From contig NZ_CP110848.1 in the NCBI RefSeq assembly GCF_026240635.1, positions 622,501 through 686,500 on the forward strand: 64,000 bases of DNA, given 5' to 3'. A program made the translations under genes and the position numbers. This document shows, piece by piece, positions 13,556-37,830 of this stretch. The stretch is from Trichothermofontia sichuanensis B231. GTDB lineage: Bacteria > Cyanobacteriota > Cyanobacteriia > B231. A model generated the notes under the pieces. That model saw nothing but the letters and a program-made list of their open reading frames with translations. It made no database searches and was not told where the DNA came from. Each line of letters begins with the position of its first letter. Position 1 is the first letter of the stretch.

Positions 13556-13663
13556 TTATGGTCAATCCAAATAAGAATGATACAGTTTTTCACTCCCCTC
13601 TCCCGCTCTGGGAGAGGGGCTGGGGGTAAGGGTGGTGTTTCAGCCTAAATGGCAATGACTATA
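13556..13663 (-). repeat. Dispersed repeat family A, copy 2
   Basis: Full-length copy in the reverse orientation: TTATGGTCAATCCAAATAAG at the left end, central inverted repeat CCCCTCTCCC / GGGAGAGGGG, and CAATGACTATA at the right end. It lies in the convergent gap between the reductase pseudogene and the leftward DMT gene, where a bidirectional terminator would be expected. Confidence 0.88.
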
Positions 13664-34176: not shown

Positions 34177-37100
34177 TCATTTAGTAGCAGTGGCCCATAG
34201 GTTCAGATCATCCTCAATAACCTCAACAGTGCTAAAGCCAGCTTGCTTAAGCTTCTCCGCTAGGGTTTTGGCAGTAAAGCCAGTTCTATGCGCCATGTAA
34301 GAGTTGCCCCTAGCGATATCGTAACTATAGCCATAAAGGATATCGATCGCAGCAATTGGCCCTGCGGCAGAAACATAAAGCGGTTCTTCCAGTTTGCCCT
34401 GAGCTACATACTCAGCTACTCGCTGCAAATCAGGTAAGGTGATCAGTACAAAGCCACCGGGTTTCAAGACACGATAAAATTCAGATAGAGCGATCGGGAC
34501 TTCATGGTGATAGACATGCTCCAGGTTGTGGGAGGAATATACCGCATCAACCGAATTAGAAGCAACGGCACTTAGATCTGTAATTGATCCCAGAAGATCT
34601 GGGTGTACAGAGGGATCAATATCCAGTCGAATCTCTTGCCACTCTGGCGATCGAAATTGCTGTGGTAGCTTATTAATATCCGCAGCACCACAGCCAACAT
34701 GAAGCAATAATTTACGATCAGGATTAGCTTCGCTAGCAGCCTCGATGTCTGAGACGGATATCTGCTGTGCTAAGGCTTCATGAACAACTTGTTGATAAAA
34801 ATTCTCTAATGCCTGTAGAGGTTCTGGATCATCATACAGTCTAGACTTGTTACGGTTGATTTTCTCAGAAATCTGCTGTCGCCATTCTGGCTCTAACCCC
34901 AACCTGACAGCAATATCAATGTATTCAGCCGCGTTATTAGCAATGGTTTCCGTCACCCCAATGCGGGTTAAAATTCCATAGGACTGCCGTCCCCGCATTA
35001 ACTGGCCAGGGCAGGTAACGATAGGCAAGTCATAGGCTAGACTATCAAGCGTAGTCAGACAGCCCGAAAACTCAAAGGTGTCTAGGAAAATATCTGCCAG
35101 TCGATAAAAATTAAAATAGTTTTGGTAAATCTCACGCGGTAAAAAAACTACATAGTCATCCGCATTTAGCCCTTGATCAGCAAAACTTCGTTGTAGCCGT
35201 TGCTGAAGTTTGCGGGTGATCTCAGGGCTGATGTGAGATTCAATAAAAACAAACTTGGCTTGCGGAATGCGTTGGGCAATGGCTGCAAAAAGCCAATCAT
35301 ACTGAGGTAAATACTTTTGTAAAGATTGTATGCAAAGATAAATAATTGCCTCTGATGGCAATCCATACTCTTGACGCGTCTTTAGTGATTTTGGCGTAAC
35401 GTCTGGCGGACTACAATGAATCCCAAGGTTGGGAAGGCGAATTAGCTTTTCTGAGTAGTGTTGCTCTGCATTCGGCAACTCCATTAACTCATTTGATAGA
35501 AAATAGTCGATCGTGGGTGAACCTGTGGTAATTGGATGTCCCCAACTCACGCATTGTATAGGTGCTAAGCGTAGTACTGACAACTGGGAAATAATCAGAT
35601 CCATTCCCACCTCTAAAAAAACTAGAATATGTAGATCTTGCTCGATAACTTTTTGGCAAATGGTATTGAGATCGCTAGGAAATTGCAGGAAGACGTCACT
35701 ATAGAGCCTGAATGCTTCACTAACAAAATCAGGTTGGGGATTAATTTGGAAACAGTAAACCTTGAAACGATCGCGATCGTGATATTTTAACCAGTTGAGG
35801 AAAAGCTTACTCACAACGCCTTGGGTTGAGATATTTGCAAAAATGTAGCCTACACGAATCTTTTGCTCTGAATCGATAGGAGGCATCTCACGGCGTTGGC
35901 ACCAGAAGGGATAATGAGCCTTGAGAATTTCATGAATTAAATTAGACCACTGACGTTGAATTTGCTGATCATTGTGGTTTTGATAAATTACATAAAAATT
36001 ATTCTTCAATTGAGGCAACGTTAATGCACTTTCTCGGCCTTCAGATGTGTCCAGATCTAAATAATTTGGCAATTGATTTAACCCTTGAATAATCTGTTCT
36101 TGATACTTTGCTAGCTCCTCAGCAGTATTGTAAATGATGGGTAATGTGAGTAACGATTCTGCCTTCAGATATAAAACTGCTGGCAAACATTCACTAGCCT
36201 CCTGCGCAACGGCAATTGCACGTTCCGGTTCACTGATATTTTGTAGAGTATAAATCCAGTGAACATAGAGGGGTAAAGACTGAGAATACCGTTTAACAGC
36301 TTCTTCATAAAGCTGAACTGCTGATTCAAACTGCTTAACTTGTTGATAACATTGTGCCAGAACTAGATAGACATCTAGGTCTTCTTTTTCTGATTTTAAG
36401 TAGCTTGTATAATGTTTTAAGTAGCTTGTATAATGATGGATCGCTGTCTCATATTCTTTGGCATAGAAGCTAGCATTACCAAAATAACGTTCAGCAAGTA
36501 GTTGCTCATTGTTGTGTTGATAGGCAACAGCAAGGTTATAATGAACGTCAGGATTATCATGTTTGAGGCTGATAGCAGTCTGATAAGTTTTAATTGCAGC
36601 CTCTATGTCCCCTCGCAGTGTCAATACATTACCCAAATTCAAATAACTGCCAAAAAATTTTGAATCTATTGCGATCGCTCTTCGGAACATTACTTCAGCT
36701 TTATCCAGTTTTTCAGCTTGCATGAATAAATTACCAAGATTATTACAAGCCAATACATTGGTATTATCTAGGACTATTGCTTGTTGATAAGCTGCTATAG
36801 CCTGCTGGGTATCCCCGATTGCCTCGAAAACTAAACCCAGGTTGTAATGCAGCAGGGACTGGTCAGGCGCTAGTGCTAGGGCAAGGTTAAGCATCGATAT
36901 TGCTGATTCATAGTCTTGATTGAGATAGTAGGCCATGCCGAGATCACGCCAGAGACTGGGATGATCAGGGGTCCAATAAAGCGCCTCCCGATATTTGGCG
37001 ATCGCTGCCTGAAACTGGTGGGCATGATGGTAAGTTAGGGCCTCAGCATACAGCCTCATCATTACCTTCTGTTTTGCATCTTGCTCCAAATTGGTAATCC

Positions 37101-37830
37101 CTGTAATGATCTTTTGCTGATGCTGCCCAGAGGCTGCAAGGTTACGAGAGTCGCTGGCTCGATATCGCTGCCATTGGAAAATCATGAAATTATGGCCAGG
37201 ATAGATAGCCTCTGATAATACTGGCATCGGTGAAAGCCACGCTAAATCACATTCAGGCGTCGTCAATAGGAAATCCTGGCTGGCTTGTTGCACCGAAGCC
37301 CAATTACTGGCAGCAACTATAATTAAAGCTTGATCGGCGAGAAATGGTTTCACCAGATGCAGTCCCATTAGCACCGATCGGTAGTCATAGGCAGCGTCAT
37401 AAAAATAAACCCCGATCGTAGGTTTATCCTGGCTGGTTCGCAAATCAATGAAAAAATCCTCAAAATTTTGATAATAAAAAGTAACCTGGTCAGATAAACC
37501 ACAGTTACTTAAATTCTCAATTAAAAGATCAAAATTATCCTGAAAAGGATCAAAGTCAGAGAAATCATCGATCGCATAGGCAAGTATTTCAGGATGGTCT
37601 TTCAGGGCACCTACTAAGCTGCGCCCCTGGAAACTGCCTACCTCACAGTAGATCTCACCAGGACTCAGGTAACTGACCGCCAAATTAAGTAGGGACAACA
37701 GTTGTGGTGACGTTGTGCCGCGAATTTGTTGACAAATCTCAGTAAATGGGTCACGGGGTGGCCAAACTCCTAGATCGTGACCCGAATTAGAACGAGAGGA
37801 CAGTTTAGTTAGGTATGCTAGAGAGTCCAT
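34177..37830 (-). CDS. Methyltransferase - TPR - OGT/SPINDLY glycosyltransferase - methyltransferase fusion protein
   Basis: 1217 residues. N-terminal class I methyltransferase-like domain (about 50-220; EIYCEVGSFQGRSLVGAL is motif I). Then about seven tetratricopeptide repeats (255-540), e.g. LGMAYYLNQDYESAISMLN. Then a family-41 O-GlcNAc-transferase-like catalytic region (about 660-1020) with CVSWGHPITTGSPTIDYFL and HYSEKLIRLPNLG. A second methyltransferase closes the protein (about 1040-1217) with LLHVGCGAADI and FYRVLKPGGFVLITLPDL. It probably glycosylates a protein or surface glycan, with the TPRs holding the target; acceptor unknown. The gene is clearly AT-richer than its neighbours, suggesting horizontal transfer. 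A 21-bp duplication adds seven residues. Confidence 0.88.
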   Translation of the reverse strand: MDSLAYLTKLSSRSNSGHDLGVWPPRDPFTEICQQIRGTTSPQLLSLLNLAVSYLSPGEIYCEVGSFQGRSLVGALKDHPEILAYAIDDFSDFDPFQDNFDLLIENLSNCGLSDQVTFYYQNFEDFFIDLRTSQDKPTIGVYFYDAAYDYRSVLMGLHLVKPFLADQALIIVAASNWASVQQASQDFLLTTPECDLAWLSPMPVLSEAIYPGHNFMIFQWQRYRASDSRNLAASGQHQQKIITGITNLEQDAKQKVMMRLYAEALTYHHAHQFQAAIAKYREALYWTPDHPSLWRDLGMAYYLNQDYESAISMLNLALALAPDQSLLHYNLGLVFEAIGDTQQAIAAYQQAIVLDNTNVLACNNLGNLFMQAEKLDKAEVMFRRAIAIDSKFFGSYLNLGNVLTLRGDIEAAIKTYQTAISLKHDNPDVHYNLAVAYQHNNEQLLAERYFGNASFYAKEYETAIHHYTSYLKHYTSYLKSEKEDLDVYLVLAQCYQQVKQFESAVQLYEEAVKRYSQSLPLYVHWIYTLQNISEPERAIAVAQEASECLPAVLYLKAESLLTLPIIYNTAEELAKYQEQIIQGLNQLPNYLDLDTSEGRESALTLPQLKNNFYVIYQNHNDQQIQRQWSNLIHEILKAHYPFWCQRREMPPIDSEQKIRVGYIFANISTQGVVSKLFLNWLKYHDRDRFKVYCFQINPQPDFVSEAFRLYSDVFLQFPSDLNTICQKVIEQDLHILVFLEVGMDLIISQLSVLRLAPIQCVSWGHPITTGSPTIDYFLSNELMELPNAEQHYSEKLIRLPNLGIHCSPPDVTPKSLKTRQEYGLPSEAIIYLCIQSLQKYLPQYDWLFAAIAQRIPQAKFVFIESHISPEITRKLQQRLQRSFADQGLNADDYVVFLPREIYQNYFNFYRLADIFLDTFEFSGCLTTLDSLAYDLPIVTCPGQLMRGRQSYGILTRIGVTETIANNAAEYIDIAVRLGLEPEWRQQISEKINRNKSRLYDDPEPLQALENFYQQVVHEALAQQISVSDIEAASEANPDRKLLLHVGCGAADINKLPQQFRSPEWQEIRLDIDPSVHPDLLGSITDLSAVASNSVDAVYSSHNLEHVYHHEVPIALSEFYRVLKPGGFVLITLPDLQRVAEYVAQGKLEEPLYVSAAGPIAAIDILYGYSYDIARGNSYMAHRTGFTAKTLAEKLKQAGFSTVEVIEDDLNLWATATK
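36394..36435. repeat. 21-bp perfect in-frame tandem duplication inside the TPR protein gene
   Basis: Two identical 21-bp units lie back to back, giving HYTSYLK twice in the protein at about residues 466-479. The length keeps the frame, so the protein merely gains seven residues in a repeat helix. Confidence 0.92.

What the first reader, a model, noticed from the sequence alone, without database searches (positions are those of the whole stretch)
34177..37830. Four-part protein: methyltransferase - TPR - OGT-like glycosyltransferase - methyltransferase
A SPINDLY-type O-GlcNAc-transferase-like domain flanked on both sides by methyltransferase folds in one 1217-residue chain, in an AT-rich, probably transferred gene. 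It could both glycosylate and methylate the same target. I know TPR-OGT proteins from cyanobacteria, but not this double-methyltransferase form as a described system.
Basis: partly seen in the sequence, partly recalled or inferred. Interest (0 to 1): 0.75.

Follow-up and report, generated by a model that had tools for sequence, protein, structure and literature searches.

The report
Pilin-linked glycosyltransferase with two methyltransferase domains
A cyanobacterial gene really does encode one long protein that joins two methyltransferase-fold domains to a repeat-guided sugar-transferring domain; relatives in other cyanobacteria often sit beside a pilin gene, so it most likely puts a methyl-capped sugar on type IV pili or another surface protein, although one of its methyltransferase domains looks inactive.

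Summary
In detail: 34177-37830(-) is one intact 1217-aa ORF with the order Methyltransf_24-like / TPR / GT41 / Methyltransf_11, and both flanks have a methyltransferase fold. The design is not unique: 16 other cyanobacterial genes read here have the same four-part chain (Leptolyngbya/Stenomitos types, Oscillatoria, Microcoleus, Tychonema, Prochloron). The three-part N-MT-TPR-GT41 form is commoner; the C-terminal MT also occurs alone, fused to N-MT, or fused to GT41 in Proteobacteria. In seven of ten four-part loci of one family a type IV pilin gene lies 167-669 bp away; in Tychonema and Microcoleus the gene neighbours a pilin-GT41 pair. TPR-GT41 proteins (Ogt) beside pilA are reported to glycosylate PilA. 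Best reading: a pilin/surface-protein O-glycosyltransferase with a fused glycan-methylating domain. N-MT keeps its SAM loop but lost its presumed cation site (DD to AA); none of 23 chains with a C-MT keeps that site, against 17 of 36 without, so I read N-MT as non-catalytic. The window's GT has also lost motif residues. Low GC (43% against about 55%) fits acquisition from an AT-rich relative. The window gene itself is not beside a pilin gene. No activity is shown.

The parts
34177..37830 (-). Whole gene: 1217-aa N-MT / TPR / GT41 / C-MT protein
37096..37830 (-). N-terminal methyltransferase-fold domain (aa 1-245; Methyltransf_24 at 62-171)
   Evidence: Pfam; AlphaFold pLDDT 88, pTM 0.87; Foldseek to SAM-dependent O-methyltransferases, E about 1e-9
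37624..37644 (-). SAM-binding loop of N-MT, EVGSFQG (aa 63-69), retained
   Evidence: alignments
37396..37398 (-). D145 of N-MT (position of COMT D141), retained
   Evidence: COMT equivalence inferred from spacing
37309..37314 (-). A173-A174 of N-MT, where active-looking relatives have Asp-Asp (COMT D169/N170 position): presumed cation site lost
36166..37083 (-). TPR array (about aa 250-555)
   Evidence: Pfam; PDB TPR matches
36394..36435 (-). 21-bp tandem duplication inside the TPR region (HYTSYLK twice, aa 466-479)
34783..35895 (-). GT41 catalytic region (aa 646-1016)
   Evidence: Pfam; PDB matches to OGT, SPY, TtOGT, XcOGT
35821..35823 (-). Q670 at the position of OGT H498 (His in 22 of 32 non-four-part relatives, Asn in 11 of 16 four-part ones)
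35314..35316 (-). K839 at the position of OGT K842 (nucleotide-sugar phosphate contact), invariant in all 49 aligned sequences
35044..35070 (-). FSGCLTTLD (aa 921-929): family motif SGG(N/H)TT(L/F)(E/D) altered to SGCLTTLD
34180..34782 (-). C-terminal methyltransferase domain (aa 1017-1217), Methyltransf_11
   Evidence: Pfam; 55-68% identity to C-MTs elsewhere, motifs invariant
34687..34701 (-). SAM-binding motif HVGCG of C-MT (aa 1044-1048), intact

Best explanation
A cytoplasmic O-glycosyltransferase of the TPR-GT41 (OGT) type for a surface protein, most likely a type IV pilin, with a fused methyltransferase that caps the glycan. The TPR array would hold the unassembled pilin (or another exported protein), the GT41 domain would add a sugar from a nucleotide-sugar donor, and the C-terminal class I methyltransferase would methylate the sugar just added. 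The N-terminal COMT-like domain would be a non-catalytic relic or scaffold that may still bind SAM. Shown: domain order, folds, motif states, recurrence of the design, pilin adjacency in relatives. Inferred: substrate, sugar, methyl acceptor, order of steps, inactivity of N-MT. In this genome the gene appears to be a recent, AT-rich arrival at a site away from the pilin locus.
For: Four-part chains recur in many cyanobacteria. A type IV pilin gene (Pilin_GH + N_methyl) lies 167-669 bp away, divergently, in 7 of 10 four-part loci of family f15, while nine three-part loci of that family have none in the 14-15 kb fetched. In Tychonema and Microcoleus the four-part gene neighbours a pilin-GT41 pair. 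Cyanobacterial Ogt genes beside pilA are reported to act in PilA glycosylation (review PMC12288463), and pilA-GT41-GT41 exists in this genome at 3.114 Mb. The TPR part of Caulobacter FlmG binds the flagellins that its GT part modifies (PMC7591256). The C-MT family travels with GT41: next to it in Acetobacteraceae and Rhodovulum, fused to it in Accumulibacter and Nitrosomonas. A 1447-aa relative has MT11-GT2-GT4-TPR-GT41 in one chain, which points to methylation of a glycan. C-MT SAM motif invariant. N-MT cation site absent in 23 of 23 chains that carry C-MT, intact in 17 of 36 that do not.
Against: The window gene has no pilin neighbour, and this genome has separate GT41 genes beside its pilA. 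The window's GT and N-MT do not fall firmly with the pilin-adjacent four-part clade; a common clade for GT is not rejected (p-AU 0.144) but not supported either. The GT domain lacks the OGT catalytic His and has an altered GCLTT motif, so it could be inactive or use another mechanism. Pilin adjacency within f15 is partly shared inheritance of one locus, and six four-part loci show no pilin. The loss of the N-MT site has no tree-corrected significance (2 supported independent pairs).
Confidence: 0.45

Rival explanations
1. Same chemistry, different target: the protein glycosylates and methyl-caps another exported protein (adhesin, S-layer or RTX protein) or a polysaccharide precursor, not pilin.
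For: No pilin near the window gene, near nine three-part paralogues of f15, or near the four-part genes of L078, L088, L089, L128, L129 and L133. GT41 proteins elsewhere modify flagellins (PMC7591256) and adhesins (PMC3012730).
Against: Repeated pilin or pilin-GT41 adjacency in several families.
Confidence: 0.25
2. The methyltransferase acts on the protein itself (for example lysine methylation of pilin) in parallel with glycosylation.
For: Trimethylation of the C-terminal lysine of PilA1 is reported in Synechocystis (PMC7076178 and PMC12288463); no enzyme is named in the passages read.
Against: C-MT family members lie next to or inside glycosyltransferase chains, including an MT11 in one chain with GT2, GT4 and GT41 domains. 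The reported mark is in a species not shown here to have a four-part gene.
Confidence: 0.12
3. In this genome the gene is a transferred, drifting copy with little or no enzymatic activity.
For: Low GC and GC3 against the genome, long terminal branches in GT and N-MT trees, lost N-MT cation site and altered GT motif, a perfect 21-bp tandem duplication, no functional neighbours.
Against: Intact 1217-codon frame, all four domains above Pfam cut-offs, C-MT motifs fully conserved, K839 and WGHP of the GT retained.
Confidence: 0.13
4. A separate question of history, not exclusive of the above: the four-part order arose more than once by joining C-MT to different N-MT-TPR-GT41 genes, or by domain swapping.
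For: Best GT and N-MT trees put the window and Tychonema outside the main four-part clade, while C-MTs of all fused cyanobacterial chains form one clade (99/82).
Against: Holding window plus main clade together is not rejected (p-AU 0.144), nor Tychonema plus main clade (0.29).
Confidence: 0.4

Closest known systems
Cyanobacterial Ogt/OgtA, the pilA-adjacent TPR-GT41 pilin glycosyltransferase (Nostoc punctiforme, Synechococcus elongatus; via review PMC12288463)
   Same: TPR plus GT41, association with type IV pilin genes
   Different: Only about 28% identity of the GT to this genome's pilA-adjacent GT41 proteins; the window protein adds two methyltransferase domains and belongs to a different GT41 branch
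FlmG of Caulobacter (flagellin glycosyltransferase, PMC7591256)
   Same: Modular TPR substrate-binding part and OGT-like catalytic part
   Different: No methyltransferase domains; target is flagellin
TtOGT of Thermobaculum terrenum (PDB 5djs) and XcOGT (2jlb)
   Same: Closest solved bacterial GT41 catalytic domains; TtOGT also has an SGC motif
   Different: No methyltransferases; TtOGT has His at the position that is Gln here
COMT-type O-methyltransferases (3tfw, SafC 5log, COMT)
   Same: Fold of N-MT
   Different: Presumed cation ligands absent in the window protein; no sequence-level match in PDB even with a profile
Accumulibacter and Nitrosomonas Nm84 TPR-GT41-MT chains (L165, L168)
   Same: GT41 fused to the same C-MT family at the C-terminus
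   Different: No N-terminal methyltransferase found; distant GT41 branch (26-28% identity)

Membership tests
GT41 (OGT/SPINDLY) glycosyltransferases | Sequence match above Pfam PF13844 gathering score | tested here: met
   113.7 bits, cut-off 25
GT41 (OGT/SPINDLY) glycosyltransferases | OGT-like fold | tested here: met
   Foldseek best hits all OGT, SPY, TtOGT, XcOGT; model pLDDT 72
GT41 (OGT/SPINDLY) glycosyltransferases | Lysine at OGT K842 | tested here: met
   K839, invariant in 49 of 49
Catalytically OGT-like GT41 enzymes | Histidine at OGT H498 (needed for catalysis in OGT, from general knowledge; not a condition of GT41 membership) | tested here: not met
   Q670; His also absent in all 16 other four-part proteins and 10 of 32 other relatives
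pilA-linked Ogt | Gene adjacent to a pilin gene | tested here: not met
   No pilin among the window gene's neighbours; met in 7 of 10 f15 four-part relatives
pilA-linked Ogt | Glycosylates PilA | not testable with these tools
   needs mutant and mass spectrometry
COMT-type / Methyltransf_24 methyltransferases (N-MT) | Rossmann methyltransferase fold and SAM loop | tested here: met
   EVGSFQG present
COMT-type / Methyltransf_24 methyltransferases (N-MT) | Cation-binding acids | tested here: not met
   D145 kept, 173-174 are Ala-Ala; ligand equivalence inferred from the same 28-residue spacing as in COMT
Class I SAM methyltransferase, Methyltransf_11 (C-MT) | Pfam match and SAM motif | tested here: met
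   41.9 bits, cut-off 21.2; HVGCG
Four-part N-MT/TPR/GT41/C-MT proteins of cyanobacteria | Same domain order in one chain | tested here: met
Four-part N-MT/TPR/GT41/C-MT proteins of cyanobacteria | Common descent of the whole chain with the main clade | tested here: inconclusive
   Not supported by the GT tree, not rejected (p-AU 0.144)

The most novel reading that the evidence does not exclude
A single-chain enzyme that adds and then methyl-caps a glycan on type IV pilins, in which an older N-terminal methyltransferase has been catalytically replaced by a C-terminal one, the four-part order having been assembled more than once.
Probability: 0.2. Interest if true: 0.65.

Novelty: new variant of a known kind. 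Interest (0 to 1): 0.45.

Why it matters
Pilin glycosylation affects pilus assembly, motility and biofilm formation in cyanobacteria, but the enzymes that build and modify the glycan are poorly known. This family offers a testable link between GT41 pilin glycosylation and methylation, with a clear gene-neighbourhood prediction. No paper found in the searched library describes a GT41 protein fused to methyltransferases, though most subscription papers are absent from that library.

Tried and rejected
ORF or assembly artefact: rejected, since many genomes share the order. 'Unique fusion': rejected. A strong claim of independent fusions from the first clade test (p-AU 9.5e-5): withdrawn, because that set held the window and Tychonema together with the main clade while leaving out a three-part protein (L133_6093) nested in it; with L133_6093 added, window plus main clade gives 0.144. 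N-MT site loss driven by C-MT gain: striking in counts (0 of 23 versus 17 of 36) but not significant on the tree. Flagellin genes beside proteobacterial C-MTs: flagellins exist in 21 of 23 such genomes, but contigs could not be matched to the C-MT loci for all, so adjacency is not shown. PDB sequence profiles for N-MT and C-MT gave no close match. Donor of the AT-rich gene: not found.

Full report
OBSERVATION. The minus strand 37830-34177 carries one uninterrupted 1217-codon frame starting with ATG. hmmscan finds Methyltransf_24 (62-171), a TPR array, Glyco_transf_41 and Methyltransf_11 (1042-1129), all above their curated cut-offs. The gene is AT-rich (GC 0.427, GC3 0.384) in a genome whose sampled long ORFs average about 0.55 and 0.60 once two edge artefacts are left out; the nearest genes are 0.52-0.60. 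It lies between a cobalamin-biosynthesis gene and a phosphoketolase gene, with which it has no evident link (those two identities are my own reading of the translations).

FOLDS. An alignment of 50 N-MT domains gave an AlphaFold model with mean pLDDT 88; its best PDB matches are SAM-dependent O-methyltransferases of the COMT type, E about 1e-9, TM-score about 0.6. The GT41-C-MT half gave a moderate model (pLDDT 72) whose best matches are OGT, SPINDLY, TtOGT and XcOGT. The C-MT assignment rests on Pfam and on motifs invariant across 13 sequences, HVGC among them.

RELATIVES. The window genome has a three-part paralogue (N-MT-TPR-GT41, 1014 aa, also AT-rich) at 3,337,227. Three-part proteins occur in many cyanobacterial families. 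A search of 390 cyanobacterial genomes with the C-MT found matches in 43, and reading the loci showed the same four-part chain in ten f15 loci and one f34 locus. A scan of named genomes added Tychonema BBK16, two Oscillatoria, Prochloron and Microcoleus vaginatus, and put names (Stenomitos, Leptolyngbya, Lyngbya, Tildeniella, Pantanalinema) to several of the others. The C-MT also occurs fused directly to an N-MT (about 420 aa), in several cases beside a separate TPR-GT41 gene; after a TPR array; alone; fused to a GT41 in Accumulibacter and Nitrosomonas; and alone next to GT41 genes in Acetobacteraceae and Rhodovulum. A 1447-aa relative combines MT11, GT2, GT4, TPR and GT41. Together these arrangements tie the C-MT to GT41 glycosylation.

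PILIN LINK. The 180-aa neighbour of the f15 four-part genes is a type IV pilin (Pilin_GH plus N_methyl). It lies 167-669 bp away, divergently, in 7 of 10 four-part loci of f15; nine f15 three-part loci had none in the 14-15 kb regions fetched. In Tychonema and Microcoleus the pilin lies 2.4-3.7 kb away, next to a second GT41 gene. Three-part genes in other families (L229, L230, L036, L022) also lie near pilins. In this genome a pilin gene is followed by two GT41 genes at 3.114 Mb, far from the window gene. A review states that Ogt genes adjacent to pilA act in PilA glycosylation and that trimethylation of a PilA1 lysine is reported in Synechocystis (PMC12288463, PMC7076178).

ACTIVE SITES. In N-MT, relatives with an intact look have D145, H148, D173, D174; by spacing (28 residues) D145 and 173-174 match COMT D141 and D169/N170, the cation ligands (general knowledge of COMT; equivalence inferred). 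The window has D, Y, A, A. Across 59 N-MTs, 0 of 23 chains with a C-MT keep the acids and 17 of 36 without do, but only two supported independent comparisons exist on the tree, so this is a correlation, not a test. In GT, the K842 equivalent is invariant, whereas the H498 position is Gln in the window and mostly Asn in other four-part proteins, and the SGG(N/H)TT motif reads SGCLTT. C-MT is intact. I therefore expect C-MT to be the working methyltransferase, N-MT to be non-catalytic, and regard GT activity as unproven.

HISTORY. C-MTs of fused cyanobacterial chains form one clade. GT and N-MT trees place the window outside the main four-part clade, weakly; a single origin is not rejected. Four-part genes elsewhere are within about 6 points of the GC of their own surroundings, so the low GC here is peculiar to this genome and fits acquisition from an AT-rich cyanobacterium; no donor was identified.

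VERDICT. A real, recurrent variant of TPR-GT41 glycosyltransferases, undescribed in the papers searched. Most likely a pilin or surface-protein glycosyltransferase with a fused glycan methyltransferase. Mechanism inferred, moderate confidence.

Noticed in passing
L028:5081-9424, L029:10017-14345: 1442-1447-aa proteins; the one scanned (L028) has MT11-GT2-GT4-TPR-GT41 in one chain, beside two further TPR-GT41 genes: a near-complete glycan-building polyprotein.
   Followed up: partly
L074:3957-6920, L075:6366-9365: GT41 chains of 987-999 aa with a C-terminal methyltransferase only 30-34% identical to the window C-MT: possibly another GT41-MT fusion in family f5.
   Followed up: no
L080:6944-8293, L085, L086, L127, L133, L083, L094, L036, L073; own genome 1980176-1981489: A separate roughly 440-aa Methyltransf_31 protein recurs beside these glycosyltransferase loci; this genome has a 53% identical copy away from them.
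   Followed up: partly
L231:2389-7881: 1830-aa N-MT-TPR-GT41 followed by a second TPR array and further glycosyltransferase matches, in a genome that also has a four-part gene (G121).
   Followed up: partly
window 18670, 24874, 28052, 43099, 58374 (relaxed matches at 13597, 14746, 38118, 42130): Repeated intergenic palindrome CTCTCCCAGAGCGGGAGAGG; one relaxed copy lies just upstream of the four-part gene.
   Followed up: no
window 36394-36435: Perfect 21-bp tandem duplication (HYTSYLK twice) in the TPR region.
   Followed up: no
own genome G000:C1:3114176-3119300 (L210:9176-14300): Pilin gene followed by two GT41 genes, the pilA-ogt arrangement; the second GT41 gene is also AT-rich (GC3 0.45).
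   Followed up: partly
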